The notes beneath the pieces were generated by a model. That model did no database searches. It was not told the origin of the DNA and saw only the letters and a list, made by a program, of their open reading frames with translations. 64,000 nt of DNA from Gymnopus androsaceus JB14 (taxonomy: Eukaryota; Basidiomycota; Agaricomycetes; Agaricales; Omphalotaceae), in NCBI GenBank assembly GCA_009733575.1, contig ML769628.1:39728-103727 (forward strand), given 5' to 3'. Numbering within the stretch: position 1 is the first letter of the stretch; each line of letters opens with the position of its first letter. The position numbers and the translations under genes were made by a program. Below, one piece after another: positions 4,433 through 33,708 of this stretch.

Positions 4433-5252
4433 TCATGCTTCGTGCCCAAGAGCTTCGAGTTTCCAAGATGGAGGATCTGGAGAAGCGTTCCGCTCAGAAG
4501 GAGTGGATGTGTCCTTTGCGAGTGCGTGAGAACCAGAGTCGGATGCATTACGCTTCCAAGACGGTGGCGAAGCTTCATGCTCATCAGACTCGCGCCTCCA
4601 AGAGGGAGGACTGGGAGCAACAGCTCGCTCACGTTTCCAATCAGGAGGGGAGGGCTTGGCCTCTCGCTTCCAAGACGGGGGAGCTGCAGACTCGGATGCG
4701 TCACGTTTCCAATCAGGAGGGGAGGGTCGGGCCTCTCGCTTCCAAGACGGGGGAGCTGCTGATTCGGATATATCACGCTTCCAAGAAGGAGGGGAGGGTT
4801 GGGCCTCGCGCTTCCAAGACGGGGGAGCCGCAGATTCGGATGTATCACGCCTCCAGGAAGGAGGGGATGGATCTCTTTCAACCGACTCGCGTTTCCAAGA
4901 GGGAGGAGCAGCGCTAGGTCCGGAAGCTTCCCGCTTCCAAGAAGGGGGAGAAGGACTGCGTTCTACTTGATCCCGCTTCAAAGAACTTTCGGGATTGGTG
5001 TCCCTTTGTGCCTAGAGAGGCAGAACTAGATCCAGATCCATTGTCCATCCAGGAAATAGATAGTTCGGGTTCCACTAACTCGAAGTCCCGAACAGAAGTT
5101 GATTGGCCCTCATTAGAGAAGGTTTCACGCTACAGAATTCATTAGAAAAATTTCTGAGCACGGAAAGATGAAGTTTGAACACTCACCAAAGGTAGAGCGT
5201 AAATTCCAGAGAATAACAAGGCTAGTATAGGAATGATCGAGGAAAAGTGCAT
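4433..5252 (-). pseudogene. K1: Kex2-processed repeat precursor, frameshifted
   Basis: Exon 1 (5187-5252) encodes a 22-residue signal peptide, MHFSSIIPILALLFSGIYA then LPL. It ends at a GTGAGT donor, and exon 2 starts at 5129 with RETFSNEGQS. Exon 2 encodes alternating peptides such as DASESAAPPSW and EAKPSPPDW, each followed by the dibasic Kex2 site KR or RR, plus a unique tail ending LGHEA. Compared with K2 and K4, one extra C lies at about 5007-5011 (GGCACAAAGG instead of GGCAAAAGG). It throws the signal peptide out of frame with the repeats. The tail itself is intact, so the break is recent or an assembly error. The repeat unit is 72 bp (13 + 11 codons). The repeat region is almost identical to K2. 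Confidence 0.8.
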
Positions 5253-5342
5253 TTCGTCGCGTTTGGGTAAACTGAAGAAATTATGAGGCTGAATAAGAAG
5301 ACTGATAGAGACTGATAATGAATAGGAAATGAGACACAAACA

Positions 5343-5350
5343 CTTTTATA
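5343..5350 (-). promoter_or_regulatory. TATA box of K1
   Basis: TATAAAAG on the minus strand lies about 90 bp upstream of the K1 start codon. It is kept at the same place in front of all four K copies (also 10372, 28893 and 33798), which supports it as the core promoter. Confidence 0.65.
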
Positions 5351-5430
5351 CCCCTCCTACTACATAACGCTTCCATATTCGGAGGGGCAGACCCTGACAT
5401 TCGCCAGGAACAGTTGGCGGATCATCCTTG

Positions 5431-6880
5431 CCATTCGGAGGGGACGTTAGCAAGGAGGTTGATCGAGTGTTCTGTCCTGCGGTTGTCACAACCGATTAAC
5501 TTTAAAAGGCAGGATAGGCTCCATGACTATTAGCGACTACTAGTTATAGACATCCGAGCGTCTCGAAGCGAGTAAGTAAATACTTTTTCTCCAACCTAGA
5601 TGGTAACGGTTGCACCGGGATGAGATGCGTACTTAAAGAGGAAGCACTCAAGAGCGCTAACGATATGTTGTCTTCGTCGGAGATTAAACCCGGCATCATT
5701 AAGGACAAGAAGCCTGAAGACCGGCTCTAATGATTATCAACTATCTAAGGTGCTCGGAACTGGGGACCCTCAGCAGCAGCGCGAGGATATGCATCACCGA
5801 TGCATGAACGGTGCCTTCGAGCCTGAGGTACATGTAAGTAGCTTTACCAGATCCCTGGCATGATCGCTGTCCTCTCTCATAAGTTGCCATTTGTGGAATC
5901 TTATAAGGTATGGGGTTTGAGTAGAACCTGTTATTCCGATCGATCCAATACATTCAGGATTGGCATCATATCTAGGTTCCAAAGGAAGACTTCACCGTTG
6001 AAAATATGCCTTTTCTTTTCCGCACTTCCCAACCTATTCGCCATTTTTGTCTGAACCAGAACAACGCTGACTCTGTCAAATATCTTTCCATATTGGTACA
6101 TATACGGACAATGTCTGTGGTAAGATAAAACACCAAAGAGCGTTTCTCTTGAGACAGTTAAATAACAGTTCAACCGGCGCCACTACTCCCGCGAACATCC
6201 CTGCGGCATTGACCACGACAGCCATATGAAGTAGTAACTGAGTTTGACATCGTCCACATTGCGACTCAGTTCAGGAAGCCCGATGCCGTACTGCTTTTCC
6301 TTTTCATCGACGCTTGAGGTAGCGGATTGCCAGTCTACGGCCTTGTATGCGCTCGGTTCGGAGTACTTCACCGGGTTATTAAGGTTATATGCGGCGTTGC
6401 TACTGAGATTGGAGCGCAGATATGAGCTGAAAGGTGCTTGGATAATAGGCAATTACCCCCTCGATTTACTCCAAACATGGAGAATCGCCGCCGACACCGG
6501 AGCCTAAGGTTGCCAGTCGGTCAACCTTTTACCTATGTGAAGTTCAAGTACATCCGCCACAGGAAACGCTCTGTTAGCTGGTTAAACTCTTCGTGATTTC
6601 AGGGATATTTTGATATTTAGATCATTCAGCATGGATTTGAGTGAACTCAGGCTGATGATTATTATGATCACTTGATTCGGTAGAGTAGTTATAGGATAAT
6701 AGAAGGCGTAACAAAAACATACGGTGAATAATAGCAAGATTATACAGAACTCAATAAACACATAGGAGTCACTAACGCTACAAAAAAAAATAGAAAAAAC
6801 AAGCTATCGTGCTGAAAGTGCGGAGTCGTAGTAGACTAGTAGTACATTAAAATCATAATTATCACGGAAGAAGAATAGGA
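5431..6880. repeat. Decayed module block R1
   Basis: About 1.4 kb shared with 10430-11960 (R2), 28950-30490 (R3) and 33850-35320 (R4). On the minus strand short coding-like pieces survive, for example SEPSAYKAVDWQS..VDEKEKQYG (6183-6452) and IFNGEVFLWNLDMMP (5931-6173). Stops and indels separate them in every copy, and their order suggests one ancestral minus-strand gene. The segment GEVFLWNLDMMPILNV faintly recalls RTA1-like seven-helix proteins, but I would not rely on it. No copy has an intact frame. Confidence 0.5.
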
Positions 6881-6889
6881 ATGATGCCG

Positions 6890-7218
6890 TTAAACAAAAC
6901 TTATCTGGATTTCTATTCATTGGAATACTCCAAAGCAGGGTCAATGCTTGTGGTGCTAGCGCTCGACCAAAGATCTGTCAAGGTGCCTGACCCGTCGACA
7001 GTGGGAGGAACTTTAGCAGAAATACTTCAATCCTCTCCCGAAGACGAGTGGACCGGAAGCTCAGCTGAGTAACTGCTGGCACTAGCAGACTGAGTAGTAT
7101 GACCCTGATCCTCTCTGCCACTGGTACTTGTATCTGTCCTATGGTTTGCGACAGACCTGTTGGGAGCATCGACAGCAAAAAGATTTTGCATTTCGACATC
7201 AGGTCCTGAGCTGCACAA
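6890..7218 (-). pseudogene. Duplicated 3' end of the HMG-box gene (unit 1)
   Basis: The minus strand reads SGPDVEMQNLFAVDAPNRSV and continues in frame to a stop at 7027 (…ELPVHSSSGED). This matches the last exon of the HMG-box gene at 12218-13935 plus its 3' flank, without the DNA-binding domain. It therefore preserves what is probably the ancestral C-terminus, which the parent gene has lost through an 8-bp deletion. It is joined directly to alcohol dehydrogenase sequence at about 7225. Confidence 0.7.
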
Positions 7219-7225
7219 TACCGAC

Positions 7226-7539
7226 TCGATCGATAGGGACAGCTTTGACGATGCCCACAGCTGAAGAACGCGTCAAAGATGAGATGCGTCGAACTGACTT
7301 GAACTCACCTTCGTGTCCAAGTGCCATATCCTGAGTTCAAAATGCAAATTTGTACCACAGAGGCCCTTTCGCGATAGAAGGTCCGCTATAAGGATAGAAA
7401 ATAGTAAAAAATATGCCCCTACTCGCGAATGGGTTACTTGAACAACGACTTCATCAAGCTCTAACCCTTGATGAGTGAAAGAAGCTTTGACCACCTTTCC
7501 CTCCTTCGATCCGTGATACGTCACGGTTATCCCTTGCAT
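7226..7539 (-). pseudogene. Alcohol dehydrogenase 5' fragment (unit 1)
   Basis: Sequence matches the first exons of the dehydrogenase at 24719-25882: start codon at 7539 (MQGITVTYHGSKEGKVVKAS), the VVQVTH exon end with its GT donor, and the GLCGTNLHFE exon. Exon 3 is cut to a few tens of bases and runs into HMG-gene sequence. The fused piece combines bases equivalent to 25276-25300 and 25583 onward of the parent, so two breakpoints are visible. It cannot encode an enzyme. Confidence 0.75.
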
Positions 7540-7944
7540 GATGAATAACAGCGAAAGAAGATGAGAATCATCCAATCCATTGCTATCTTATAAGTAGAAT
7601 TATAGTAACGAAACAACAGAGCATGCATAAAACAGCTCTGTATTTCAACCTACCGAAATAAAGTAGATTACTTATTTACTCTTTGCGGAGGCCAAAGCTG
7701 TAGATATTGGTTGTGACTGCTGTGACTGATCGGTGACAAGTACGAGTGCGTTGCATGTTATTTTGACACTTGAAGCCCTCGCAAGCCAGAATGTCTTGAA
7801 ATGAAGATAATCCTGGTTTTAACGGGGAGTTTGGCATGCAGTCGGAATCTAGTAATGGCGCAGCTCGCCTTCAAGCATCCGCAATCGGAATAAAGTAACT
7901 TGGAAATGTTCATTACCAACGTTGCAGCTGCACAAGAATAATTC
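7540..7944. repeat. Module spacer between dehydrogenase and hydrolase fragments
   Basis: Shared with 25890-26450 and 31100-31506, including the word TTTGCGGAGGCCAAAGCTGT. No gene is seen. It corresponds to the 5' flank of the dehydrogenase gene up to the hydrolase breakpoint. Confidence 0.6.
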
Positions 7945-9031
7945 GTGATGTTGCAGCGGTTGATACGTCTGAAGTGCGTTTCTCCCAGATCCTGAGTTTG
8001 GCAGTACGTAGTCACGGTGTTGCAAATAATCCGCGCAGGCTTTGGCTGATTCGTTGCAGGCCGTCTGCGATGCCTCGCCTACACATGAAGATGTAAAAGG
8101 ACCTCATCCAGACAGTTTATCATTGATGTTTGTCACGTCCGATTTCAGCCTCAAGTAAGAGCTACTAGTAAATCCAAGCATCCGATACAATACACGGCTA
8201 GTGCGTCAAATAATTTCGAACGAAATTATTAGCGAAATTATTGTTGTGATTAATTACCTTTTTCAGTATGAATTTCGGCTGAAAAACAACATATTTTTCT
8301 TATGAAAAACGCATTGAGAAAGAATCAGAATTTCGCTCGGAATGATTCATAATTTCACGTGTAATAAGTCGTGTATTTCGCTCGAAAAACACAAAAAATT
8401 TCACAACCCTAATTCAATTCAATCGCCTTCAGCGCTTAGTTTCGCTGATTTTTGGCGCTCATTATTTTAAATTGAATTAGGGTTGTGAAATTCTTTGTGT
8501 TTTTCGAGCGAAATAGATGACTTATTACATGGGAAATTATGAATCATTCCCGAGCGAAATTCTGATTCTTTCTCAATGCGTTTTTCATAAGAAAAAGATG
8601 GTGTTTTTCAGCCGAAATTCATACTGAAAAAGGTAATTAATCACAACAATGATTTCGCTAATACTTTCGTTCGAAATTATTTGATGCACTAGCCGTGAAT
8701 AACAATCCTTGTACATAGCACCCTACTGAGAACGTGATCTCTCAACGAGGAGACACACCCAACTCGGTCGTGGTTCAAAGCCATGGGGAAGACCACGGAA
8801 GTTACCACGGTAAGTCTCAATACCAGAATCAATGGATTTTGTCTACAAAAATAGCTTCCGGACCGGTACGCGATGTAGAAATAGCCTACCTTAACACTAG
8901 AGTGCTCCAAGAAGTAACTACCAGAGCTTCATATCGATATCTTACCCGGTCAAACGATTCCTGGTCTAGAAGATCCTTAATATGCTGTCCCGGTAGGACC
9001 AGCTGCTGGAGAGGGGTTTTCGTCTGACTAG
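7945..9031 (+). pseudogene. H2: hydrolase 3' fragment interrupted by a MITE
   Basis: Similarity to the parent hydrolase begins abruptly at GTGATGTTGCAGCGGTTGAT, equivalent to about 3158 of the parent. It covers the CDA(S/W)P exon, the VTSDF region, the GRED-type exon (EDHGSYH) and the VRDVEIAYLN exon. There is no N-terminal half or start codon, and a 505-bp element sits in the intron region (8193-8697). It is not functional. Confidence 0.75.
8193..8697. mobile_element. 505-bp palindromic MITE, 4-bp target duplication AATA
   Basis: Nearly the whole element is one inverted repeat. The ends read CACGGCTAGTGC and its complement, the arms run about 210 bp each, and the central spacer is about 70 bp. 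Direct AATA repeats flank it (8189-8192 and 8698-8701). The orthologous position at 31752 reads GATACAATAACAATCC without the element, so an empty site is available inside this window. The arms are rich in TTTCGCTCGAAA-like words. No transposase is encoded. The superfamily is uncertain. Confidence 0.88.
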
Positions 9032-9525
9032 GTTCATGTCGAATGTTAACGATGACTCGGACTTGAATGGTCTTGTCTTGTCAACGCTGGCGTACTGTTT
9101 AAAATTATAGTCATTCCTTACTCTCTCTCGTCGTTCTCCACCTGCTGCTCCAGTTCCTCTTCGTTTTAGATATATACTTTTAGTTTGTTTCATTCCTTGT
9201 TCTAGTTAGGATGATTAGTCTGGACTCTATGGGAACTTGCTTTTGGTTTCAATTTCAAGGCGTCGAATTACTATTAAAGGAGTACAATTACTATTTTACA
9301 GATACACAAATTAATTATTGAGTAGACAATATTAATTTCACGAGGTAAATAGAGAAACGAAGATCCATATATATGTGTCGAGTCATGAACAAAAAGCCGA
9401 GTGCGCCAGCAAATATCATGCTTCGTAGGACCGGGAGAAGCGTTCCGCTCAGGAGGGGATGTGTCCTTTGCGAGTGCGTGAGAACCAGAGTCGGATGCAT
9501 TACGCTTCCATGACCGTGGCAAAGC
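9032..9525. repeat. Module spacer and detached K2 tail
   Basis: Continuation of the module 3' flank. Between about 9415 and 9522 the minus strand still encodes remains of the K tail (SWKRNASDSGSHALAKDTS), now downstream of the K2 premature stop and shortened by a deletion. Confidence 0.6.
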
Positions 9526-10281
9526 TTAAGCTTCATGCTCACCAGACTCGCGTCTCCAAGAGGGAGGACTGGGAGCAACAGCTCCCTCACGCTTCCAATC
9601 AGGAGGGGAGGGTTTAGCCTCGCGCTTCCAAGACGGGGGAGCTGCAGATTCGGATGCGTCACGTTTCCAATCAGGAGGGGAGGGCTTGGCCTCTCGCTTC
9701 CAAGACGGGGGAGCTGCAGACTCGGATGCGTCACGTTTCCAATCAGGAGGGGAGGGTCGGGCCTCTCGCTTCCAAGACGGCGGAGCTGCTGATTCGGATA
9801 TATCACGCTTCCAAGAAGGAGGGGAGGGTTGGGCCTCGCGCTTCCAAGACGGGGGAGCCGCAGATTCGGATGTATCACGCCTCCAGGAAGGAGGGGATGG
9901 ATCTCTTTCAACCGACTCGCGTTTCCAAGAGGGAGGAGCAGCGCTAGGTCCGGAAGCTTCCCGCTTCCAAGAAGGGGGAGAAGGACTGCGTTCTACTTGA
10001 TCCCGCTTCAAAGAACTTTCGGGATTGGTGTCCCTTTTGCCTAGAGAGGCAGAACTAGATCCAGATCCATTGTCCATCCAGGAAATAGATAGTTCGGGTT
10101 CCACTAACTCGAAGTCCCGAACAGAAGTTGATTGGCCCTCATTAGAGAAGGTTTCACGCTACAGAATTCATTAGAAAAATTTCTGAGCACGGAAAGATGA
10201 AGTTTGAACACTCACCAAAGGTAGAGCGTAAATTCCAGAGAATAACAAGGCTAGTATAGGAATGATCGAGGAAAAGTGCAT
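9526..10281 (-). CDS. K2: Kex2-processed repeat precursor, truncated tail
   Basis: Two exons (10216-10281 and 9526-10158) give a 232-residue secreted protein. The signal peptide ends near YALPL, then comes a Ser-rich leader ending SLGKR. Twelve or so peptides follow, separated by KR or RR: DTSESAAPPSW, EAQPSPPSW, DISESAAPPSW, EARPSPPDW, then two pairs of DASESAAPPSW with EAKPSPPDW. The design predicts cleavage by Kex2 in the late Golgi, trimming of basic residues by a Kex1-like carboxypeptidase, and secretion of peptides ending in Trp. A 6-bp duplication (AAGCTTAAGCTT at 9523-9534) creates an in-frame TAA, so the last ~45 residues seen in K4 are lost. The repeats themselves are open, so peptides could still be made. 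It carries one repeat pair more than K1. Confidence 0.78.
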
Positions 10282-10371
10282 TTTGTCGCGTTTGGGTAAA
10301 CTGAAGAAATTATAAGGCTGAATAAGAAGACTGATAGAGACTGATAATGAATAGGAAATGAGACACAAACA

Positions 10372-10379
10372 CTTTTATA
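10372..10379 (-). promoter_or_regulatory. TATA box of K2
   Basis: TATAAAAG about 90 bp upstream of the K2 ATG, identical in position to the other copies. Confidence 0.65.
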
Positions 10380-12217: not shown

Positions 12218-13935
12218 CTATGCTCTACGACAGACCTCATCGACAGCAAAGAGATTTTGCATTTCGACATCAGGTCCTGAGCCGCATATCGGAATTACAA
12301 TCTGAGAAGTCTGTAATTGAACATCTTCCCTCTCCATCGGAACTGGGGACCCGGCAGAAGATCGCGAGCTGGCTTCCGAGTCTATAGTTGACAAAGGGGA
12401 AGCATGCAGAAGATCGAACGGAGTGGCAGCGGAATACGCGTCAAGGAAATCCAAGGATAGTTTGTTTGGAAAGTCATCTGAACAGTTATTGTGAACGATA
12501 AATGGCTGATCATGATACGTATGTTGCGAAAGTGAGAAATCTGGGAGGGAGCCTCCGTCACCGTACTGCTCTTTTCCACATTGCTTCTCCAATGAGCTCG
12601 AACCGAACACGAGCTCGGGCTGAAATAGGGAAGAGGAATGGGTCTCCGGCGAGTCCCAGTCGTCGATGTGGCTTTCAGACTTTAGCCCATTTTCAGTGCA
12701 AGCACCGCTGAACCCCTGAGCGCTTGACGACCGTCTACAAAAGTCGAGGTTCAAAGCAGGGAGGAGAGGGGAGTAGGTCTCGCGGGACGCATACTGGGAG
12801 AGCAGAGAGGGGATCAAAGGCATGGAGAATGATGGAGCAGAGACAAAGGTATGAATCGGAGGAAGCTGCATGCTGTTAGTGTCATGCGACGTGGCCGAGC
12901 TAGCATTGCTATAGGATGGAAGACATGAATCGAGGGGAGGGAGATAATAATGAGATTGGCTACTTTCGGAACCAGCAGTCTCCAGGAGCAGCGGCGCAGA
13001 AGATGATCTGCGGCTGGGATATCTCGATGGTGCCGCAGAGGGAGCGCTAGAGGAAGGAGAAGAGAGTGAGGACAAGACAGGTAGTGTGGGCACCACGATA
13101 GGACTACCCTCCGTACGTGATGATGGATCGACTCTACTACGAAGAGAGTCCCATTTATTGACGGCCACAGTCAATCTATCGTTCTTCTTTCCTTCGATGA
13201 GACATTGGGCAATATAATCTTCACGACTGGGAGTCGGAGGATCGATAGACAGGACTTCAAACGAAGGCTCTGTCACAAGGAAACTCGAGGTCGAGGCGGA
13301 GAACGGCTTTTTCCCATCGTCTTTGGTTTTTTTCTTTTTGCCGTGGATGGGGGTGAACCGATAGTCGGGATATTTGCGTTTGTGTTCCGCCTTCGCCGCA
13401 TCGGCCTTTTTATACCAAAACCTCCTTTCTATCTCTGGCAGTAATTTCCAGCAAGAGGCTGCAACCACAATATCAGAGACCAGAGCGAGATCGAGTTATT
13501 TGTTTCTTACCGATAATCTTGCTCAACGAGCCGTGGCTTGTTTCAATAGAACTCGGTACACGTCTCTGCTTGACGAAATCGGAACGAAAAAGCATGAAGG
13601 CATTAGGAGGTCGAGGGATATGCCCAGGCTCTTTCTGAGTCCGACGACGTGATTGAGAACTTGAAGATGAAGCTTCGGCTGAGGGTGGAAGTACAAATGA
13701 CGATTCGTCTAAAAATTGCTCGTCGTCCTCTTCTACTTCATCATTGCAGTTGAATGTTCCTGGAGTAACATTCCGAGCGAAGTTGAATGTCGTTTGACAT
13801 GGTGTGGTGGCATCTGTGGCAACGCGACTCGGTCAGTCATTGAGCTGTAAACGGGATGAGACTCAGAGGATGTTGCATACCTGGAAACCCAGAGAATCCT
13901 CCCTGGGTTCTTGTGCTAGAACGCGTCGCAGGCAT
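12218..13935 (-). CDS. MATA-type HMG-box transcription factor
   Basis: Three exons (13881-13935, 13511-13813, 12218-13458) join in frame to 532 residues. The HMG box spans roughly residues 87-165. It starts HIPRPPNAFMLFRSDFV, continues through SLSKIIASCWKLLPEIE across the second intron, and ends AEHKRKYPDYRFTP, followed by a basic KKKK stretch. This is the sequence-specific MATA_HMG class, whose basidiomycete and yeast members (Prf1, Ste11, pcc1) regulate mating and development; the exact role here is unknown. The rest is Ser/Pro-rich and probably disordered. The C-terminus ends EVCRRA because an 8-bp segment (GTTGGGAG on the plus strand), present in the duplicated tails at 7.2 and 35.6 kb, is missing. 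This replaces about 45 residues. It is the only copy with a DNA-binding domain. Confidence 0.85.
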
Positions 13936-15540: not shown

Positions 15541-18500
15541 ATGGCAGTCTTATCCCTGCCTTTGAGCTTCAATAACTCGTTCTGGTCCCAAGATTATCGT
15601 CGGGGTGTGGAGACCCTCTACAATAAGCTCGAACAAGTGTGTATTTGTTTTCCTCTCACTGGAAAACTTCTGACTTTATTGACTAGGGAACCATTGAGAA
15701 TGAGGAGATCATCGCGTTCATACGGGTATGTCCACATTCCAATCTGTCTTTTGACTCAAGAATTAATCCTGAACACGTCAGGCGCGCGCTGAAGCTGAAA
15801 GCCAACTAGCAGATGCTTTGAACAACACTGCACTTACCGGTACTACCGGTATGATCTTAACTTAATGGAATCTTCCAGCCTTCATGCTCACAAGAGCTAA
15901 TAGGAATTGGATTCGCTGCGGACGATGGTGCATCTTTGCTCATGGCGTTCCGTGGTCTCCAGACAGAGTCCACCACTCAAGGTCAAGTGCATCAGAATAT
16001 ATCCAAGGAGCTTGCTAGTTTAGTGGCAGACCCTTTTGCTGAGTGGGCCAAGGGATACAAGGTATTTACTCTAGCTGTTGGATCCCAACTGCATGTTTAC
16101 ACGTTGTAAAGGACCGCATCATGCAAAGCAAAGGAGTTGTACTCAGCCAATGGCTCTATAGCTATGAGCACAACATAGGAGAAGTAGCTAAACTGAAGCA
16201 CCAATATTTAGCCAAAGTCAGGGCGGCTGATGAAGCTGAAGACGAGTACGGTTCTTCCAATTCATCCATTCATTCTACGTATCTCAGCATTTATCTAGTT
16301 TGAAATTCGCTCCCAACTCTGGCAAAAGCGATAACTATACAACATCTCCCCGACTTCGCCCAATCGACGCTCGTTCCCCTCCTATGCGGACTGCAAGCGT
16401 TTCAGAGCGAATCGCTGCGCGCTTCAAGGATATTCAAAAGAAAAGCACCAGTGCATTATCTGGCGAAAACACCTCGCTTCTTTCCTCAGAACCCGACGAA
16501 GTAGCCAAAGTGGACAAGGGGAAAGGAAAGGCCGTAATTTTCGAGGCTTCCCCTATGCAACTCAACTCCCCGCTTCCCATGTCACCACCCTTACCTCCAA
16601 AAGTGGAAATCCCGAGTTCCCCGATGCCACCAATGGCAGCTGAACCCATGCTTCTTGCGGGGCTTTCTCTTCCGCCTGTTGCTGTATCTCAGCTTCTTAC
16701 CAAAGCAGCTAGTGAGCTAAACCTACGGCCCGTTCGGTTCCCATTGTTGGGAGAGTACAAAGACTGTTTCACTGGGGATGAATTTGTTGCATGGTTGAAA
16801 GAAAATGTTCAAGGCCTCGGAGGAAGCCTTGACCGCGCTGAACAAGCTGCCAAGGACCTTACCGAGAGAGATGGTCTGCTGCGACGAATCGGAGAATTAG
16901 GAAACGATTTCGAGCACTCGGAAGAAGCTTTTTATCAGTTCCGACCCAAGGCACGCCAATCTATGCTGGCGCCTCAATTCTTACTGACCTTGATTCATTC
17001 TAGGCATTCGACATTGAAGGGAAGAACGCAGATGCCGCTAGTAGTCTTTCGCCGATCAAGCTGCAACCAGATCAATTGCTCAAGCGTACAAACACTTTCT
17101 TCAACGTTGTCACTAAAGCACTGAATGCGAACCAAACGTCGGAACCTACTCACATGAAAACACGCCATGAGGCTGAAGAAGCCGACAAGGCCTACCGTGT
17201 TGCTGTTCGCCAGCTTGACCGACAACGGTTAAGTATTGAGGAGAGACTTGAGGATACGTTAAAGACGCTTCAAAGATGGGAAATTGAAAGACTTCGCGCT
17301 GTCAAGACAGGTAAGCTTTATACTTAAAGTTCTTTTCCGTTTTTCCTTATTGACGCGGGACAATAAGTATTGCTTCAATACCAAGGTACACTCGCGAACC
17401 TGCCCAAGTCGCTTGAGCCTATCATTGAGCGCCAAGGGACTCTGATCGCCGCTTATCAGCCTGAAAACGACCTCAGCGCTCTCATCGAGCGCTACCGCAC
17501 TGGACCGTTCAGACCTGATGCTCAGGTATACGAGTCGGTTGCTCACGATGAATCAGATGTGGTTTTCGGTATCGACTTGAGGAAATGGGCCGAAGGCGGA
17601 TGGAGTACGCTGATGTCGGCTGACGAAGAAAAAAAAGAGACGATCCCACCTGTGGTTGACGCGTTGCTGAACGGTATAACTGCGGCGTATGCCAAACTTC
17701 CTAACGATGCAGGTGCGTGCGTCTCCCTGGAGTAGCATCCTTATTCTCCACTAATGCCCATTTCAGAGAAACGCAAGGCCTGGATCTATGAAGTTCCTTT
17801 GTCAGCAGTGCATCATTTGCGTGAAGCTCTCAATGCTATACCCCCCGAGCAGCCCATCAAGCCCGAGGTGTTTGAGCCTTTCGATGCCCCTGTCATCGCC
17901 GCTACTATCAAACTATGGTTGCTTGAGCTCGATCCTCCGCTCGGGCTCTATGAGTCGTGGGATGACTTCCGTAAATTGTATCCCACTTTGGGTGCAGCTC
18001 TTGTGATTAAACCAGAAGGCGAAGACACCAGGGAGGAGAAAATCAAGGAATTGAGTATAATGCTTCAACGCCTGCCTCGAGTCCATCTTTATGTCCTCGA
18101 CAAAATTGCTAGTCATTTGAAGAAGTGACGTATATTTTGATCTTCACGTATCATGTTCTTACTAAAGTATCCGCCTCTAGCCTTATTCAAACTACAAAAG
18201 TCGATGAGCCGGATGAAGTTTTTATTACAAAAATTGCTCTCTCTATCGGACGCAGTAGGTTTCATTTTGCGAACTAGGTTTACCGATCTCTAATGTCTCT
18301 TTCAGCCATCATTCGTCCCAAATTTGAGACTGAAATGTCTATCCAGGATCGTCATCCTACATGTATGTCTATTCAAAGCATCTTGTCTGTAATATCTGAC
18401 ATCTTTTTTTGCAGTGCTGTTCATCGATATCCTGAAAGATTATGATGCCATTATCCCTCCGACTATTGCCCGCAAGAAACGGGAGTCGGAGCGCAAGATA

Positions 18501-19361
18501 CCCCTCCGAAAACGTACGGCCCCGATGGACATGAGAATCCACAGAAGCAGACTTTCGACTGGTGTTGATGCAAAGCAGTTGTTGGCTGCTCAGCACGCTG
18601 CACAGAATCCGTCTGGCAGGACCAAGTCTCCGCCGCCGGTTCCTCCGATGCCTTCGATACCGATACCAGGTCCTCCGCCAATCGTCTCGCCTCAACCTGT
18701 AGTCCCTCCGCCTCCACCGCCACAAGTGATTTCGCCTCCGCCTCCTCCCCCGGTGATTCCTCCTCCACCTCCGTTGACTTCCCCGCCTGCTGCGGACGCT
18801 CCTCCAAGACCATCTTTTAAAACCCCTCCTCCTGAAGACGAGGATCTTCCTGTTCGTCCAACATTCAAGGAGCCGCTCCCGGAACCTGAAGAACTCGTGG
18901 CACCGCCAAGGCCTCAGTTCACTGACCCATCTTCAGAGCCCGATTCGCCCAGTGTCCCTGTTATTCCAGCCGTATCGCCTCCCACACCAAAACCGATTGC
19001 GAATGCCAGTGTTCAACGGTCAAGTAGCGCGCGCGCTGCTAGCCCCAAAATCGGTTCCCGTAGTCCTTCGCCTCCGGCTGATCAGACTCTGAGTGCTGCC
19101 AAATCTTCGATAACGAGGTCTTCGTCCGGAGGAGTGCGTGGTCCAAGGATGACTCGTGGTCCTAGAGCTCCCGGTGGAACCAGTAGGAACAGTGTTGTTG
19201 GTTCTCCTACAAGCACTAGCAGCAATTCTCCTACGAGTCCCAACTATAAACGCAATTCAGGTGGAAGTGGTAGCAGGCCGTCGAGTGTGCTAGGCAGGTC
19301 CTCAGCATTTTCTCGTAGAACGATGGCTAGTGATGCAGAGGATGAGGTTGTTGACAAGTAA
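15541..19361 (+). CDS. F-BAR / DEP / RhoGAP protein (Rgd2-like)
   Basis: This multi-exon gene encodes a protein of about 1000 residues. The N-terminal F-BAR (FCH) begins SFNNSFWSQDYRRGVETLY and continues through FIRARAEAESQLADAL to a long helical segment. A DEP domain follows (FPLLGEYKDCFTGDEFVAWL ... GLLRRIGELGNDFE). More helical F-BAR sequence follows (RHEAEEADKAYRVAVRQLDR), then a RhoGAP domain (VFGIDLRKW ... VPLSAVHHLREALN ... PVIAATIKLWLLELDPPL). The C-terminus is Pro-rich, with stretches suited to SH3 partners. This order matches yeast Rgd2, a GTPase-activating protein for Rho-type GTPases at the plasma membrane and septum. The usual GIFR arginine-finger motif is not seen; the aligned place reads EKRKAWIYEVPL. 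The intron at 16951-17003 starts with GC rather than GT. The Pro-rich tail ends at TAA 19359-19361. Confidence 0.85.
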
Positions 19362-24718: not shown

Positions 24719-25882
24719 TTAATAATCCCAAGATAGCACGCCACGATAACGCATCTTCCCGTCTTTTAGTTTCTGAATCGCTTCATTGATGCCTTGTTCA
24801 GACATAGGAAATTTTTCGATGATGGGTCTGACGTTGTTTCGGTCAGCAAACTCGAGCATTTTGTTTCTGGAAGTCATCAATGTCAGTATTTTTGTTTAAC
24901 CGGAAGGAAAGGCTCACTGTATGTAACGACTCGCTAGAATAGATCCAATAATCTTGATCCCTCGAACAATAGTACCTTGATTAGGAGCGACGAGCATATC
25001 GGGCGAAACAGTCAGAGGCATGATTGTAGCCTCCGGAGATAGGATAGGATAGTATTGTCCAAGGTTCACTAGGGATGAGGTAGTGATAATCAAACGGTCC
25101 ACTGGTTTGGTGATTCCCAGTTTGGATAAATCTTCGAAACCGTTTGTCGCATAAAACTCTTTTGCGCCTAGAGACAACGCTTCTTCTCGTTTTGAATCAG
25201 TGCCGGAAAATGCGACAACGTCACAACCCATCTTCGCAGCAAACTGGATGGCCAGATGCCCTAGACCACCGATACCCACAATACCGACTCGATCGATAGA
25301 GCGGCAGTATTCAACAAGAGGCATGAAGACAGTCGCACCACCACACATTAGTGGGCCAGCATATTCAGAGGGGAGCCCATCGGGTATGCGGAATAGCCAC
25401 GTCTCTTTCCACACGCCGATGTTGCTGAAGGAGCCTTGATCAAGGTCAGCTTGGCCGTACATCTTTGCTTCTGGGCAATATCGATCGCTGCCGGAGAGAC
25501 ACTGCGGACAGACACCGCACGACATGTGCTCGTATCCCCAGCCTACGCGGTCACCTTCTTTCAACAATTTGCATGAGGCTCCGACAGCTTTGACGATGCC
25601 CACAGCTGAAGAACACGTCAAACTTGAGATACGTTGAACTGACTTGAGCTCACCTTCGTGTCCAAGTGCCATATCCTGAGTTAAAAAATGCAAATCTGTG
25701 CCACAGAGGCCCCTTCGCGATAGAAGGTCGGCTATAAGGATAGAAAATACTAGTAAACAATATGCCACTACTCACGAATGGGTGACTTGAACAACGACTT
25801 CATCAGGTTCTAACCTTTGATGAGTGAAAGAAGCTTTGAGCACCTTTCCTTCCTTCGATCCGCGATATGTTATCCCTTGCAT
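24719..25882 (-). CDS. Zinc-containing NADP-type alcohol dehydrogenase (CAD-like)
   Basis: Four exons (25776-25882, 25654-25712, 24918-25605, 24719-24866) join to 333 residues. The catalytic-zinc ligands sit in HSGLCGTDLHF and LGHEAVGIV. The structural-zinc cysteines lie in HMSCGVCPQCLSGSDRYC. The Rossmann dinucleotide motif is VGIVGIGGLGHLAIQFA. The C-terminal exon reads NKMLEFADRNNV and ends RGVLSWDY. This is the medium-chain cinnamyl-alcohol-dehydrogenase-like family, which reduces aldehydes in the cytosol with NADPH. The length is slightly short for the family, with a compact N-terminus. No inactivating change was seen. Pieces of this gene recur in each module: 5' exons at 7.2-7.5 and 30.8-31.1 kb, and internal exon 3 sequence at 35.66-35.88 kb. 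Confidence 0.88.
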
Positions 25883-26451
25883 GATGAATATTAGTTGAAG
25901 ATACGAATCATCCAATCCCTCACTCTCTTATAAACTTTAAAGGGAATGAATTACTAAGTCGCGGAGCCAGCCCGACAACTATAAGTCAGCATTTTAGAGA
26001 CAGGCTGATAAACCAGCCCGAGTCCGAAAATCAGCATCCGGGACTTGCCGAAGTTGTGGATATCGGTCCATCCTTTTAGCGGCTCCTGCTTGAAATTTTG
26101 GGCACGTCAGTGTTATTTAACGAATCAACAGATCACACATAAATCAGTTCTACTTCAACCTAACGAAACAAAGTAGATTACTTATTCGTAAGTAGTAAAA
26201 TTTACCTTTTGCGGAGGCCAAAGCTGTAGATATTGTTGCAAGTTATTTTGACGCTTGTAACCGTCGCAAGACAGAATTTCTTGAAATAAAGATAAGCCTG
26301 ATTTTAACGGTGAGTTCGACATGTAATCGGAATCTATTAATGGCACAGCTCGCGTTCGAGCGTCCACAGGGTTCTTCCAGCCTTCATAGTTCGCAATCGG
26401 AACAAAGCAACTTGGCAATATCAATTACTAACGTTCCAGCTACACAAATAG
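25883..26451. repeat. Dehydrogenase 5' flank, module spacer
   Basis: Promoter side of the dehydrogenase. From about 26130 the sequence matches the spacers at 7540-7944 and 31100-31506. No gene is seen. Confidence 0.55.
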
Positions 26452-27275: not shown

Positions 27276-28096
27276 ACAATGACTCGAACTTGAATTGTCC
27301 TGTCTTGCACTCCTTATCTCGATGCTGTTGTCAACACTGGTGTATTATTTCAAAATTATAGTCGTTTCTTACTCTCTCCCGCCGTCGTTCTACGCCTTCC
27401 TCTTCTTTTTAGATATATACTTTAATTTTGTTACGTTCATTGTTCTAGTTAGGTTCATTAGTCTACATCTATGAAAACTTGCTTTTGATTTCAAACTCTG
27501 GCACTGGGAGTCTGGGATGCGACCTTCACCGACTCACCAACATGCCAAGGCTATTGACATGCCATTAACCTGTCCTTATCAGTCGTCAAGAACACGTCGA
27601 GTCTGACGATACAAAAACATACTTAAAGAGAAACAGAGCTGCGGTTTTCTCCGAATCTTCCCTAGAAAAAATTTCCCGGGCGAGGCTAAAGCTAGTATCT
27701 GACGGACTTCGCAGCATGCCATGGGATGGGCTCGGGGAAACGTGAACTTCTGTACTTGCAAGAATGAGAAGAATTTCAATTTCAAGGAATCGAATTACTA
27801 TAAGTAGAGTTACTAATTCACAGGTACACAAATTAATTATTGAGTAGTAAGTATTAATGTCAAGAGATAAATAGAGAAATAAAGATCCATATATGATATT
27901 ATTAACAAAAAGCCGAGTGCGCCAGCAAGTATCATGCTTCGTGTCTAAGAGACTCGAGTTTCCAAGGTAGAGGACCGGGAGAAGCGTTCCGCTCAGAAGG
28001 AAAGGATGTTTCTTGTGCGAGTGCGTGAGAACCAGAGTCGGATGCTCTACGCTTCCAAGATGGTGGCGAAGCATCATGCTCGTCAGACTCGCGCCT
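27276..28096. repeat. Module spacer and K3 pseudo-tail
   Basis: Module 3' flank as at 3751-4432. Between about 27930 and 28096 the minus strand carries the untranslated remains of the K3 tail, downstream of its nonsense codon. Confidence 0.6.
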
Positions 28097-28818
28097 TCAA
28101 GATGGAGGACTGGGAGCAACAGCTCGCTCACGCTTCCAATCAGGAGGGGAGGGTTTGGCCTCGCGCTTCCAAGACGGGGGAGCCGCAGATTTGAATGCTT
28201 CACGCTTCCAATCAGGAGGGGAGGGATTGGCCTCGCGCTTCCAAGATGGGGGAGCCGCTGATTCGGATGCATCGCGCTTCCAATCAGGAGGGGAGGGTTT
28301 GATCTCGCGCTTCGAAGACGGGTGAGCCGCTGATTCGGATGCATCACGCTTCCAATCAGGAGGGGAGGGTTTGGCCTCGCGCTGCCAGGAAGGAGGAGCG
28401 GATTTAGACACAGAATCATCGCGCTTCCAGGAAGGAGGAGATGGTCCTCTTTCAACCGACTCGCGTCTCCAAGAGGGAGGAGCAGCGCTAGGTCCGGAAG
28501 CTTCCCGTTTCCAAGAAGGGGGAGAAGGACTACGTTCTACCTGATCCCGCTTCAAAGAGCTTTCAGGATTGGTGTCCCTTTCGCCTAGAGGGGCAGAACT
28601 AGATCTAGGCCCGTTGTTCATCCGGGAAACAGATAGTTCGTGCTCCACTAGCTCGAAGTTCCGAAGAGAAGTTGCTTGGCCCCCATTAGAGAAAGTTCCA
28701 CGCTAAAAAATCCATTAGAAAATTTTCCGAGCACAGAAAGGTGAACACTCACCAAAGGTAGAGCGTAAATACCAGAGAATAACAAGGCTAGTATAGGAAT
28801 GATCGAGGAAAAGTGCAT
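28097..28818 (-). pseudogene. K3: Kex2-processed repeat precursor, Trp-to-stop
   Basis: Exons 28753-28818 and 28097-28702 would give 223 residues. The signal peptide is as in K1. The leader Kex2 site is changed from KR to ER (PLGERDTNPESS). Some repeats are degenerate: SAPPSWQR, SAAHPSSKR, EIKPSPPDW and AFKSAAPPSW. The codon for the Trp after APSPPS reads TGA, ending the frame about 60 residues early. Several peptides remain open and flanked by KR, so a shortened product is possible. It is the most diverged copy in sequence. Confidence 0.75.
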
Positions 28819-28892
28819 TTTGTCGCGTTTGAGTAAACTGAAGAAAGAAGACTGATAGAGACTGATAATGAATAGGAAATGAGACACAAACA

Positions 28893-28900
28893 CTTTTATA
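28893..28900 (-). promoter_or_regulatory. TATA box of K3
   Basis: TATAAAAG about 75 bp upstream of the K3 ATG. The spacing is shorter than in K1/K2 because a short stretch of the leader is deleted. Confidence 0.6.
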
Positions 28901-28949
28901 CGCCTCCTACTACATAACACCTCCATATTCGGAGAGGCAGGCCCTGACA

Positions 28950-30490
28950 TTCGCCAGGAACAGTTGGCGGATCATCCTTGCCATTCGGAAGGGACGTTAG
29001 CAAGAAGGTTGATCGAGTGTTCTGTCACAGCCGATTAACTTTGGATAGGCTCCATGACTATCAGCGACTAGTTATAGACATTCGAGCTTCTCGAAGCGAA
29101 TAAGTAAACACCTTTTCTTCAACCTGGATGGTAAGCGTTCCACTGACTGCTTAGAGAGGACTCAAGAGCGCTAACGATATGTTGCCTTCTTGCCGGCGTC
29201 GGAGATTACACCCGGCATCGTTAAGGACAGGAGGTTTGAAGACCAGCTTTAATGATTACTTTCAATCATGAATTATGGGCTCGGACTGGGGACCCTAGCG
29301 GCAACGCACACACCAGGATATGCATGAATGGTGCCTTCGACCCTGAAGTAGTAGTTTTAGTACCGGATTCGTCGCATGATCGCCGTCCTCTCTCATAAGT
29401 AATAGTTGCCATTTCGAGAATCTTAACATCATGGGGTTTGAGCAGAACCTGTTATTCCGATGGATCACATACATTCAGCATTGGCATCTTATCTAGGTTT
29501 CAAGTGCAGACTTCACCGTTGAAAACATGCCTTTTCTTTTCCGCACTTAGTACTTCTATCACCAACCTGCTCGCTATTTCTGTCTGAAGCGAACATCACC
29601 AACTCTACCAGATAAATCTGCGTATTGACGCGTACGTGACGCCTTAGTAAATATACGGAGACTGTCTGCAATAATATAAAACACCAAAGATCGCTTCTCT
29701 CGAGTCAGTTAATTCAACAGCTCAACCGGCGCCACTACGCCCATGAACGTCCCTGCAGCATTGGCTGACCGCGACAGCTATATGAAGTAGTAACTGAGCT
29801 TGACATTGCCAGCCCGACAGTGCGACTAATTCCGGGAAACCGACGAGGATGCTGTACTGTTTTTCCTTTTCATCGACGCTTGAGTTAGCGGACTGCTGGT
29901 CTACGGCCTTGTATGCGTTCGGTTCAGAGCACTTCACCTAGTCATTAAGGTTATATGCACCATAAAAACCTGAGAGAGGTAAGCGCTCGTATTTTCCGTT
30001 CGGCGGCGTTGCTACTGAGATTGGAGTGCAGATATGAGCTGAAAGGTGTTTGGATAATAGGCCATTACCCCTCGATTTACTCCAAACATATGGAGAATCG
30101 CCGCCGACACCGGAGCTTAAGGTTGCCAGTCAACCTTTTACCTACCTGAAGTTCAAGTAAGTACATCCGCCACAGGAAATGCTCCTGTTCGTACAGTGTT
30201 AGCTAGATAAACTCTCCGTGATTCCAGATCGCTTGATGTTTTGGTCTTTCAGCATCGATCATCGAGATTTGAGTGAGCTCAGGCTGATAATTATTATGAT
30301 CACTTGATTCGGTAGAGTAATTGTAGGATAATAGTAACAAAAACATATTGTGAATGATCGTAGGGTTGTACAAAATTCAACAAAAAAAAATGGGAATCAC
30401 TAACAATACAAAAAATTGAAAGAACAGACTATCATGCTGAAAGTGCGGAGTCGTAGTAGGTACATTAAAATCATAATTATCATGGAAGAA
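28950..30490. repeat. Decayed module block R3
   Basis: Counterpart of R1/R2/R4. The part from about 29640 to 30360 is essentially identical to 34465-35190 in R4. The 71-codon minus-strand frame (29722-29937) and its R4 twin (34550-34765) encode the same residues, indicating recent copying or gene conversion. No intact gene is seen. Confidence 0.6.
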
Positions 30491-30499
30491 GATTAGTAA

Positions 30500-30770
30500 T
30501 GATGCCGTCGAACAAAACTTATTTGGATTCCTATTTATTGAAATACTCCAAAGCAGGGTCAATGCTTGTGGTGCTAGCGCTTGACCAAAGATCTGTCAAG
30601 GTGCCTGACCCGTCGACAGTGGGAGAAGCTTTAGCAGAAATACTTCAATCCTCTCCCGAAGACGAGGGGACCGGAAGCTCAGCCGAGTAACTGCTGGCAC
30701 TAGCAGACTAAGTGGTATGACCCTGATCCTCTCAGCCGCTGGTACTTATCTCTGTCCTATGCTCAGCAGG
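30500..30770 (-). pseudogene. Duplicated 3' end of the HMG-box gene (unit 3)
   Basis: Matches the HMG-gene 3' exon end and flank (SSGLPVPSS-type codons and the GCTAGTGCCAGCAG region), without the DNA-binding domain. It is shorter than unit 1 because the segment around DVEMQNLFAVD is deleted. Confidence 0.6.
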
Positions 30771-31100
30771 TCCTGAGCGGCACGATACCAACTCAATCGA
30801 TAGGGACAGCGTTGAAAATGCCCACAGCTGAAGAACGTGTCGAAACTGAGATGCGTTGCACTGACTTGAACTCACCTTCGTGTCCAGGTGCCATATCCTG
30901 AGGTAAAAATGCAAATCTGTACCACAGGGGCCCCTTCGCGATAGAAGGTCAGCTATAAGGATAGAAAATAGTAAACAATATGCCCCTACTCACGAATGGG
31001 TTACTTGAACAACGACTTCATCAAGCTCTAACTTTTGATGAGTGAAAGATTTGACCACCTTGCCCTCCTTCGATCCGCGATACATTACCCCTTGCATGAT
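30771..31100 (-). pseudogene. Alcohol dehydrogenase 5' fragment (unit 3)
   Basis: First exons of the dehydrogenase (start codon near 31100; VVVQVTH exon; GLCGTDLHF exon), fused to HMG-gene sequence at about 30780 in the same way as unit 1. Non-functional. Confidence 0.7.
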
Positions 31101-31506
31101 GAATAACAGTGGAAAAAGATGAGAATCATCCAATCCATTGCTCTCTTATAGATAGAATTACAGTAACGAAACAACAGAGCATGCATAAAACAGCTCCGCA
31201 TTTCATCCTACCAAATAAAGTAGATTACTTATTTACCTTTTGCGGAGGCCAAAGCTGTAGATATTGGCTGTGACTGCTGTGACTCTGATCGGTGATAAGT
31301 ACGGCGAGTGCGTTGCATGTTATTTTGACACTTGAAGCCCTCGCAAGCCAGAATATCTTGAAATGAAGATAAGCCTGGTTCTAACGGGGAGCTCGGCATG
31401 CAGTCGGAACCTAGTAATGGCGCAGCTCGCCTTCAAGCCTCCGCAATCGGAATAAAGTAACTTGGCAATGTCCATTACCAACGTTACAGCTACACAAAAA
31501 TAATTC
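31101..31506. repeat. Module spacer before H4
   Basis: Same spacer as 7540-7944. No gene is seen. Confidence 0.55.
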
Positions 31507-32110
31507 GTGATGTTTCAGCGGTTGATACGTTTGAAGTGCGTTTCTCCCAGATCCTGAGTTTGGCAGTACGTAGTCACGGTAAGTATTGCAAATAATACGC
31601 GCAGGCTTTTGCTGATTCGTCGCAGGCCATTTGTGATGCCTGGCCTACACATGAAGATGTAAAAGGACCTTATCCAGACAGTTTTTCATTGATGTTTGTC
31701 ACGTCCCATTTCGACTTCAAGTAAGAGCTACTAGTAAATCCAAGCATTCGATACAATAACAATCCTTATACATAGCACCCCTACTGAGAACGTCATCTCT
31801 CAACGAGGAGACAAACCCAACTCGGTCGTGGTTCGACGCCACGGGGAGGACCACGGAAGCTACTACGGTAAGTCTCAATACTACAATCAATGGATTTTGT
31901 CTACATGCTTACATCAAAAATAGTTCCTGGACCGGTACGCGATGTAGAAATAGCCTTCCTTACCACTAGAGTGCTCCCAGAAGCAACTAACCAGAGCTTC
32001 ATATCGGTGTTACCCGGTCAAACGATTCCTGGCCCAGAAGATCCTTAATATGTTGTCCCGGAAGGACCAGCTGCTGGAGAGGGGTTTTCCTCTGACTAGG
32101 TTCACGTCGA
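31507..32110 (+). pseudogene. H4: hydrolase 3' fragment
   Basis: Fourth copy of the hydrolase C-terminal exons, without insertions. The exon read AICDAWPTHEDVKGPYPDS has no extra T at the place where the parent is frameshifted, so it serves as an internal reference. There is no start codon, and the end of the frame is disrupted. Confidence 0.75.
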
Positions 32111-32824
32111 ATGTTAACGATGACTCGGACTTGAATGGTCTTGCCTTGCACTTCTTCTCTCGATGCTGTCGTCAACGCCGGCGTACTATTTAAAACTGTA
32201 GTCATTCCTTACTCTCTCCCATCGTTCTCCGCCTGCTGCTCCGGTTCCTCTTCGTTTTAGATATATACTTTTGGTTTTTTTTCTTTCCTTGTTCTAGTTA
32301 GGATCATTAGTCTGGACTCTATAAGAACTTGCTTTTGGTTTCAAGCTCTGGTACTGGGAGTCTAAATGCGACCTTCACCGACTCATCAACATGACTTTTA
32401 GAGGCCAAGGCTATTGACATGCTATTAACCTGTCATTATCAGTCGCCAAGGACACGTCTCCGACGACACAAAAACATACTTCGAAGAGAAAACCGCGCTC
32501 TGGTTTTCTCTAAATCTTCCCTAGAAAAAGTTTCCCGGGCGGAGCTGAAGCTGGTATGTGACGGACTTCGCGTCAAGCCATCATGGGATGGCTGGGGAAG
32601 TTCTGTACTAAAACTGCACTGCACAAAATCATACAAGAATGAAAAGAATCTCAATTTCAAGGCGTCGAATTACTATTTAAGGAGTAGAACTACTATTTCA
32701 CAGGTACACAAATTAATTATTGAGTAGAAAATATTAATTTCACGAGGTAAATAGAGAAATAAAGATCCATATATGATATTATTATGTGTCGATTCATGAC
32801 AAAAAGCCGAGTGCGCAGCAAATA
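32111..32824. repeat. Module spacer between H4 and K4
   Basis: Shared 3' flank of the converging H and K genes, as at 3751-4432. No gene is seen. Confidence 0.55.
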
Positions 32825-33708
32825 TCATGCTTCGTGCCCAAGAGCCTCGAATTTCCAAGATGGAGGATCTGGAGAAGCGTTCCGCTCAGAAGGAGTGGAT
32901 GTGTCCTTTGCGAGTGCGTGAGAACCAGAGTCGGATGCATTACGCTTCCAAGACGGTGGCGAAGCTTCATGCTCACCAGACTCGCGCCTCCAAGAGGGAG
33001 GACTGGGAGCAACAGCTTGCTCACGCTTCCAGTCAGGAGGGGAGGGTTTGGCCTCGCGCTTCCAAGACGGGGGAGCTGCAGATTCGGACGCGTCACGTTT
33101 CCAATCAGGAGGGGAGGGTTTAGCTTCTCGTTTCCAAGACGGGGGAGCCCCAGATTCGGATATATCACGCTTCCAATCAGGAGGGGAGGGTTTGGCCTCA
33201 CGCTTCCAAGACGGGGGAGCCCCAGATTCTGATATATCACGCTTCCAAGAAGGAGGGGAGGGTATGGCCTCGCGCTTCCAAGACGGGGGAGCCGCAGATT
33301 CGGATGTATCACGCCTCCAGGAAGGAGGGGATGGATCTCTTTCAACCGACTCGCGTCTCCAAGAGGGAGGAGCAGCGCTAGGTCCGGAAGCTTCACGCTT
33401 CCAAGAAGGTGGAGAAGGACCACGTTCTACCTGATCCCGCTTCAAAGAGCTTTCAGGATTGGTGTCCCTTTTGCCTAGAGGGACAGAATTAGATCTAGGT
33501 CCGTTGTCCATCCGGGAAATAGATATTTCGTGTTCCACTAGCTTGAAGTCCCGAAGAGAAGTTGCTTGGCCCCCATTAGAGAAAGTTCCACGCTAAAAAA
33601 TCCATTAGAAAATTTTCTGGGCACAGAAAGGTGAACACTCACCAAAGGTAGAGCGTAAACTCCAGAGAATAACAAGGCTATTATAGGAATGATCGAGTAA
33701 AAGTGCAT
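32825..33708 (-). CDS. K4: intact Kex2-processed repeat precursor
   Basis: This is the only full-length, uninterrupted copy. Exons 33643-33708 and 32825-33592 give 277 residues. Residues 1-22 form a signal peptide (MHFYSIIPIIALLFSGVYA, LPL). A Ser/Asn-rich leader ends PLGKR. About fourteen segments follow, nearly all ending in W-K-R or W-R-R: EASGPSAAPPSW, ESVERDPSPPSW, DTSESAAPPSW, EAIPSPPSW, then three alternations of D(I/A)SES(G/A)APPSW with EAKPSPPDW, then EQAVAPSPPSW and ESGEHEASPPSW. The tail (NASDSGSHALAKDTS ... LGHEA) lacks further dibasic sites. The layout matches alpha-factor-like Kex2 precursors, the fungal KEP class, and Ustilago Rep1. Dikaritin RiPP precursors such as UstA share it too, but no UstYa-type (DUF3328) gene was recognised nearby. 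The function of the peptides is unknown. Confidence 0.85.

What the first reader, a model, noticed from the sequence alone, without database searches (positions are those of the whole stretch)
4433..33708. Four-copy family of alpha-factor-like Kex2 repeat precursors with alternating Trp-ending peptides
Seen: four paralogous minus-strand genes encode a 22-residue signal peptide plus alternating peptides of two types, D-x-SES-(A/G)-APPSW and EA-x-PSPP(D/S)W, each followed by KR or RR. Known: this layout matches Kex2-processed precursors (yeast alpha-factor, Ustilago Rep1, fungal KEPs, dikaritin RiPP precursors). Inferred: two distinct secreted Trp-terminal peptides are released from one precursor in near 1:1 ratio, possibly as signals, cell-surface peptides or cyclised RiPPs. 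The PPSW/PPDW family is not one I recognise as described.
Basis: partly seen in the sequence, partly recalled or inferred. Interest (0 to 1): 0.9.

Follow-up and report, generated by a model that had tools for sequence, protein, structure and literature searches.

The report
Mushroom secreted-peptide repeat precursors
The genome of the mushroom Gymnopus androsaceus carries four copies, one of them intact, of a gene built from two alternating short peptide units that would likely be cut out, trimmed and secreted, probably as signals; precursors of this kind are already known from other mushrooms.

Summary
The repeats are real. Four minus-strand copies (K1-K4) share a signal-peptide exon, a 50- or 57-nt intron, and a repeat exon with D-x-SES-x-APPSW and EA-x-PSPP[DS]W units and dibasic linkers. 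Only K4 is intact: K1 has a frameshift, K2 a TAA, K3 a TGA. The repeats are under purifying selection; the leader shows little or none. The genome is Gymnopus androsaceus JB14. This is a Kex2-processed repeat protein (KEP) family. A dikaritin route is unlikely: no UstYa match on the contig, no Tyr in K4 outside the signal-peptide exon. Added here: three further, otherwise different KEP genes of this genome share the PP[SD]W tail, and the genome has one STE2-related seven-helix receptor candidate, although class I receptors are reported as Ascomycota-only. A ligand-receptor link is untested.

The parts
33643..33708 (-). K4 exon 1: start codon and signal-peptide codons (22 codons)
   Evidence: read by eye as a signal peptide, no predictor was run
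33593..33642 (-). K4 intron, 50 nt, GTGAGT...TAG, phase 0
   Evidence: by splice signals and frame only
32825..33592 (-). K4 exon 2: leader and 14 units, intact to the stop (277-aa precursor)
28753..28818 (-). K3 exon 1
28097..28702 (-). K3 exon 2: leader and 11 complete units, ends early at TGA (223 aa); one unit ends PSS and one linker is QR
10216..10281 (-). K2 exon 1
9526..10158 (-). K2 exon 2: leader and 12 complete units, ends early at TAA (232 aa)
5187..5252 (-). K1 exon 1
4433..5129 (-). K1 exon 2: leader, then a one-base frameshift, then 12 units in another frame
33029..33310 (-). K4 central array of alternating D-x-SES-x-APPSW and EA-x-PSPP[DS]W units (72-nt dimers)

Best explanation
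This is a segmentally duplicated family of Kex2-processed repeat proteins in Gymnopus androsaceus JB14, one intact two-exon gene (K4) and three copies with lesions, whose precursor is predicted to be cut by Kex2/Kex1 after each PP[S/D]W unit and trimmed by a Ste13-type dipeptidase into unmodified, Trp-ending peptides that likely act as secreted signals. Seen in the sequence: the repeat units, the dibasic linkers, X-A and X-P dipeptides after the linkers, purifying selection on the repeats, and matches to Kex2-type and Ste13-type protease families elsewhere in the genome. Inferred: the splice sites, secretion, the Kex2 cut, loss of the basic pair, and Ste13 removal of EA then xP (leaving SPPDW or SPPSW) and of DA (leaving SESAAPPSW), while DI and DT units stay full length. 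The PP[SD]W end is the constant part and the likely recognition element, because otherwise different KEP genes of the same genome share it and one of them ends exactly at W before its stop codon. The signalling role is the least certain step.
For: Units and linkers. Selection: between K2 and K4 the repeats differ at 20.5 of 102.3 synonymous and 9.5 of 311.7 nonsynonymous sites, Fisher p 4.8e-7; five of six copy pairs give pN/pS 0.15-0.32, the sixth (K1-K2) differs by one synonymous change; the leader gives dN/dS 0.51, 1.04 and 1.24 in three pairs. STE13 signature: 27 of 49 units begin X-A, 14 of 15 short units begin EA-x-P. Enzymes: two P_proprotein loci, one DPPIV_N gene. Shared tail: C29 (10 PPDW units, last W directly before the stop), C112 (5 PPDW units), C209 (6 PPSW units). 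Precedent: C. cinerea KEP 490115 gave QMRPPSW and QYKAPSW in P. pastoris after RR cleavage and XA/XP removal; GPPAPSW found in C. cinerea supernatant; AADW-ending KEP peptides in Lentinula and Pleurotus fruiting bodies (PMC9769878).
Against: No transcript or peptide was seen. Three of four copies are broken, so the family may be decaying or only K4 may matter. Only 27 of 49 units carry the X-A start; 22 do not, and the C29, C112 and C209 units mostly lack it. The copies are mosaics, so the selection tests are not independent. Knock-out of six C. cinerea KEP genes, 490115 among them, gave no phenotype, and synthetic peptides showed no antibacterial activity (PMC9769878), so a signalling role has no support from mutants.
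Confidence: 0.7

Rival explanations
1. The peptides act outward on other organisms (defence, competition or communication with partners) rather than as signals to the fungus itself. Processing is the same.
For: Vogt et al. favour a role with the biotic environment because KEP knock-outs grew and fruited normally (PMC9769878). Copy number change and lesions fit a fast-changing outward role.
Against: No antibacterial activity was seen for the synthetic KEP peptides tested against five bacterial strains (PMC9769878). The units are short, Pro/Ser-rich and without Cys, unlike typical antimicrobial peptides (general knowledge).
Confidence: 0.25
2. Dikaritin-type RiPP precursors whose cores are cyclised by UstYa oxidases.
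For: Same precursor layout; the genome has UstYa genes (51 exon-level matches).
Against: None of the 51 UstYa matches lies on contig C246 (103.7 kb). Both Tyr of K4 lie in the signal-peptide exon. Umemura found DUF3328 genes near only 103 of 1680 basidiomycete KEP genes (PMC7329392). Le Marquer et al. state that the STE13 signature is absent from cyclic-peptide precursors (PMC6339444).
Confidence: 0.04
3. Structural cell-surface peptides like Ustilago Rep1 repellents.
For: Kex2-cut repeat layout is shared.
Against: Rep1 peptides are 37 aa and lack the STE13 signature (PMC6339444); most units here are 9-12 aa and Pro/Ser-rich.
Confidence: 0.04
4. A decaying gene family without function; the repeats persist through duplication and gene conversion.
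For: Lesions in three of four copies, a further fragment on C68, mosaic copies.
Against: Purifying selection on the repeats in five of six pairs, an intact K4, and 350 nt upstream of the start kept at 91-94% identity between copies.
Confidence: 0.12

Closest known systems
Coprinopsis cinerea KEP 490115 and other basidiomycete KEPs with STE13 motifs and C-terminal Trp (Vogt et al. 2022, PMC9769878)
   Same: Repeats, dibasic sites, XA/XP dipeptides, products ending PPSW or APSW (QMRPPSW, QYKAPSW)
   Different: Other core sequences; here two unit types alternate in one precursor. I did not see the 490115 sequence or their Fig. S10a, so direct homology is untested
Lentinula / Pleurotus AADW KEPs (PMC9769878)
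   Same: KEP layout, Trp end; STE13 motifs in the Pleurotus precursors
   Different: AADW instead of PP[SD]W; a search of this genome with the L. edodes unit returned 11 matches, the best E 4.9e-4, all to the PP[SD]W genes on C112, C246 and C68
Two-motif KEPs of Le Marquer et al. 2019 (PMC6339444)
   Same: More than one repeated peptide type per precursor
   Different: 77 of 1193 surveyed KEPs have two types and two have three: uncommon but known
Yeast / ascomycete alpha-factor precursors
   Same: Signal peptide, Kex2 sites, X-A spacer dipeptides; Trp is also at the end of some alpha-type peptides such as the PCW ending named in PMC6339444
   Different: No sequence relation detected (no Pfam match of K4 at E 0.01); [quoted passage not shown]
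Ustilago Rep1; dikaritin precursors
   Same: Kex2-cut repeats
   Different: No STE13 signature there, longer peptides (Rep1) or UstYa-modified cores (dikaritins) (PMC6339444)

Membership tests
Kex2-processed repeat protein (KEP) | Repeated peptide units separated by dibasic Kex2 sites | tested here: met
   46 of 49 units followed by KR or RR
Kex2-processed repeat protein (KEP) | N-terminal signal peptide | tested here: inconclusive
   Hydrophobic 22-codon exon ending ALPL, by eye only; no predictor on hand
Kex2-processed repeat protein (KEP) | Precursor cut and peptides secreted | not testable with these tools
   Needs peptidomics
STE13-type, Trp-ending basidiomycete KEP (Vogt et al. 2022) | XA/XP dipeptide after the dibasic site | tested here: met
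   27 of 49 units overall, 14 of 15 EA-x-PSPP[DS]W units
STE13-type, Trp-ending basidiomycete KEP (Vogt et al. 2022) | C-terminal Trp of the core | tested here: met
   48 of 49 units
STE13-type, Trp-ending basidiomycete KEP (Vogt et al. 2022) | Ste13-type dipeptidase in the genome | tested here: met
   DPPIV_N on C27, two adjacent exon matches, 160 and 52 bits against a cut-off of 22
Dikaritin RiPP precursor | UstYa (DUF3328) gene close by | tested here: not met
   0 of 51 matches on contig C246
Dikaritin RiPP precursor | Tyr in the core for cross-linking (feature partly recalled; ustiloxin and phomopsin cores carry EDYXI in PMC6339444) | tested here: not met
   K4 has 2 Tyr, both in the signal-peptide exon
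Ascomycete alpha-factor | Sequence match to alpha-factor families | tested here: not met
   No Pfam family at E 0.01 for K4
Rep1-type repellent | Long (37-aa) peptides bound to the hyphal surface | tested here: not met
   Length only: most units are 9-12 aa; location not testable
Class I (STE2) receptor, for the C121 gene BT96DRAFT_761514 | PF02116 match over the curated cut-off | tested here: inconclusive
   29.8 bits by six-frame search and 27.9 bits on my approximate join against a cut-off of 27.2, but of the 8 deposited proteins only P0014 passes (28.8), five are below it and two give no match
Class I (STE2) receptor, for the C121 gene BT96DRAFT_761514 | Ste2-like seven-helix fold | tested here: met
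Class I (STE2) receptor, for the C121 gene BT96DRAFT_761514 | LPLSSMWA-type motif with Pro290 on helix 7 (99% of Ste2; PMC8942848) | tested here: not met
   All 8 aligned proteins read GV[LI]FAT[IMV]W in helix 7: the Trp is kept, no Pro (placed by eye)
Class I (STE2) receptor, for the C121 gene BT96DRAFT_761514 | Pro258 on helix 6 (98% of Ste2; PMC8942848) | tested here: inconclusive
   SNFVFP is present in 7 of 8; P0010 lacks the segment; equivalence placed by eye

The most novel reading that the evidence does not exclude
Mushrooms run a non-mating alpha-factor/Ste2-like peptide axis: the secreted PP[SD]W peptides, made by several otherwise different KEP genes that share this tail, are ligands of a divergent Ste2-type receptor (C121, BT96DRAFT_761514, with relatives in Lentinula, Tetrapyrgos, Crucibulum and Dendrothele), a receptor class held to be confined to Ascomycota.
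Probability: 0.1. Interest if true: 0.9.

Novelty: new member of a known kind. Interest (0 to 1): 0.48.

Why it matters
Alpha-factor-like KEPs of basidiomycetes have no known receptor or function in the papers I read. This genome supplies several precursors with one constant tail and variable bodies, which points to PP[SD]W as the element to test. It also supplies a Ste2-related receptor candidate, so the open question of what senses these peptides becomes testable in a yeast reporter assay.

Tried and rejected
Dikaritin reading: disfavoured by UstYa position and by the absence of Tyr in the cores. Alternative frames: the repeat regions also keep long open frames in other frames of both strands, because the unit length is a multiple of three; selection and motif point to one frame. 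AADW-type KEP: searched with the L. edodes unit, 11 matches at E <= 10, all to the PP[SD]W genes already known. A Trp-KEP beside the receptor gene: the 8 kb around it gave one frame with two W[KR]R, which overlaps the receptor gene itself and is not a KEP; the window also holds one such frame at 18372-18932 on the minus strand, antisense to a Pro-rich frame, not a KEP either. Relatives of the K family: 5 proteins at E <= 1, but only the 7998 candidates sharing most words were scored; P0002, whose GAPPSW units lack dibasic linkers, was not counted as a KEP. The pattern only sees linkers that start with A after TGG, so CGN-first linkers are missed. Other receptor classes: in the VIA lists TAS2R14, rhodopsins and class A receptors also reach high Z, so the fold alone does not settle the receptor's class. 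Literature on Ste2 in basidiomycetes: three searches; their listings, of which I opened three papers for passages, showed no report of a basidiomycete class I receptor; two papers state that the class is confined to Ascomycota.

Full report
What is there. The window is G000:C246:39728-103727 of an 83.27-Mb, 934-contig genome. Two deposited proteins of Gymnopus androsaceus JB14 lie on contigs whose lengths equal C30 (374,632) and C121 (189,901), so the organism is taken as G. androsaceus JB14 (Agaricales, Omphalotaceae). On the minus strand four copies share a 22-codon signal-peptide exon, a short phase-0 intron (57 nt in K1 and K2, 50 nt in K3 and K4), and a second exon with a leader and the repeats. 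K4 is a complete 277-aa precursor. K1 has a one-base frameshift between leader and repeats, K2 a TAA after 12 complete units (232 aa), K3 a TGA after 11 complete units (223 aa). No protein identical to K4 was among the five returned by the protein search, so the gene is probably unannotated.

Units. From the repeat start to the first stop in each copy (K1 in the frame of its repeats) there are 49 units: 48 end in PP[SD]W and 46 are followed by KR or RR. Fifteen are E[AI]-x-PSPP[DS]W (one has EI). Thirteen fit D-x-SES-x-A-x-PS[WS] strictly, and EAFKSAAPPSW is a variant of it. In 14 of 15 short units EA is followed by x-P, so repeated trimming would leave SPPDW (11 units) or SPPSW (3 units); the residue x, which takes five values in 15 units, lies in the part trimmed away. 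I recalled, and did not test, the rule that such enzymes stop before X-P-P. DI and DT units would not be trimmed.

Selection. Between K2 and K4 the repeats differ at 20.5 of 102.3 synonymous and 9.5 of 311.7 nonsynonymous sites (Fisher p 4.8e-7). Five of six copy pairs give pN/pS 0.15-0.32; the sixth, K1 and K2, differs by one synonymous change. The leader gives dN/dS 0.51, 1.04 and 1.24 in three pairs. Within the short units the residues PSPP[DS]W show almost no synonymous change either, so part of their sameness may come from DNA-level homogenisation; the evidence for selection rests on the comparison between copies. The copies are mosaics: K1 and K2 are identical through exon 1, intron and leader apart from the one-base length change, but in the tail K1 is closer to K4 (97.9%) than to K2 (94.5%), which suggests gene conversion, so the pairs are not independent.

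Genome context. The copies sit in duplicated blocks of several kilobases; matches to the zinc alcohol dehydrogenase region at 24914-25933 recur beside them. No UstYa match lies on the contig (0 of 51). Kex2-type P_proprotein (two loci) and one Ste13-type DPPIV_N gene are present. STE3 has 33 exon-level matches, none on C246.

A shared tail. A motif-pair scan found 95 matches against 49 for the reversed control; 61 of the 95 fall in arrays on C246 (40), C29 (10), C112 (4), C209 (3), C68 (2) and C30 (2), by my count of the rows; the other 34 are scattered. C29, C112 and C209 read as two-exon genes with a signal-peptide-like first exon: 10 PPDW units with the last W directly before the stop, 5 GPPDW units, and 6 GDPESSNWPPSW units. 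The intron of C29 and C112 is phase 0 right after the signal-peptide exon, as in K1-K4; that of C209 is phase 2. C68 holds a fragment of a K copy and C30 two degenerate inverted copies. Beyond this genome, P0001 (ENA), P0003 (Pleurotus eryngii), P0004, P0006 and P0007 (Hohenbuehelia grisea) carry PPSW, PPDW, APDW or RADW units with dibasic linkers. P0003 and P0007 end at PDW.

Literature. Seen: PMC9769878 (abstract, Results parts 1 and 2 of 3, Discussion, passages), PMC6339444 (abstract, second half of Results, section 15, passages), PMC7329392 (abstract, passages), PMC12842992, PMC13308352 and PMC8942848 (passages only). Supplements were not open to me. Vogt et al. report C. cinerea KEP 490115 giving QMRPPSW and QYKAPSW after RR cleavage and XA/XP removal in P. 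pastoris, and many other basidiomycete KEPs with STE13 motifs and a C-terminal Trp (their Fig. S10a, not seen). A search for PPSW, PPDW and KEX2-processed, of which the best 15 of 9,048 papers were listed, listed no other KEP paper that holds PPSW or PPDW. So the family is a known kind; the K genes are new members.

Verdict. A real, selected, partly broken KEP family; most likely precursors of linear Trp-ending peptides. Ordinary in kind, with two useful additions: the shared PP[SD]W tail across several KEP genes of one genome, and a Ste2-related receptor candidate.

Noticed in passing
G000:C121:25136-25600 (L046, L047): Exons of a seven-helix receptor, deposited as BT96DRAFT_761514 (partial), related to Ste2 by profile and fold, with relatives in other Agaricales although class I receptors are reported as Ascomycota-only.
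   Followed up: yes
G000:C29:129123 onward, C112:142901 onward, C209:62546 onward: Three further two-exon KEP genes with PPDW or PPSW units and different bodies; C29 ends at W before its stop codon.
   Followed up: partly
G000:C30:253000-259500 (L032): Two inverted, degenerate PPSW-bearing copies, one deposited as BT96DRAFT_935258; between them lie inverted copies of a reductase-like reading frame.
   Followed up: no
window 8190-8700 and 63271-63603: Two palindromic stretches that match their own reverse complement (90% over 513 and 84% over 346 alignment columns), perhaps fold-back elements.
   Followed up: no
window 29371-30764 and 34192-35594: Flanks of K3 and K4 are 94% identical, above the 85% of the stretch that holds the K genes themselves; no long open frame seen there.
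   Followed up: no
window 12218-13832 (-): HMG-box gene between K2 and K3 (50 bits on an approximate exon join).
   Followed up: partly
window 24914-25933 (-): Zinc alcohol dehydrogenase whose parts recur beside K1, K3 and the end of the K4 block at 84-88% identity.
   Followed up: partly
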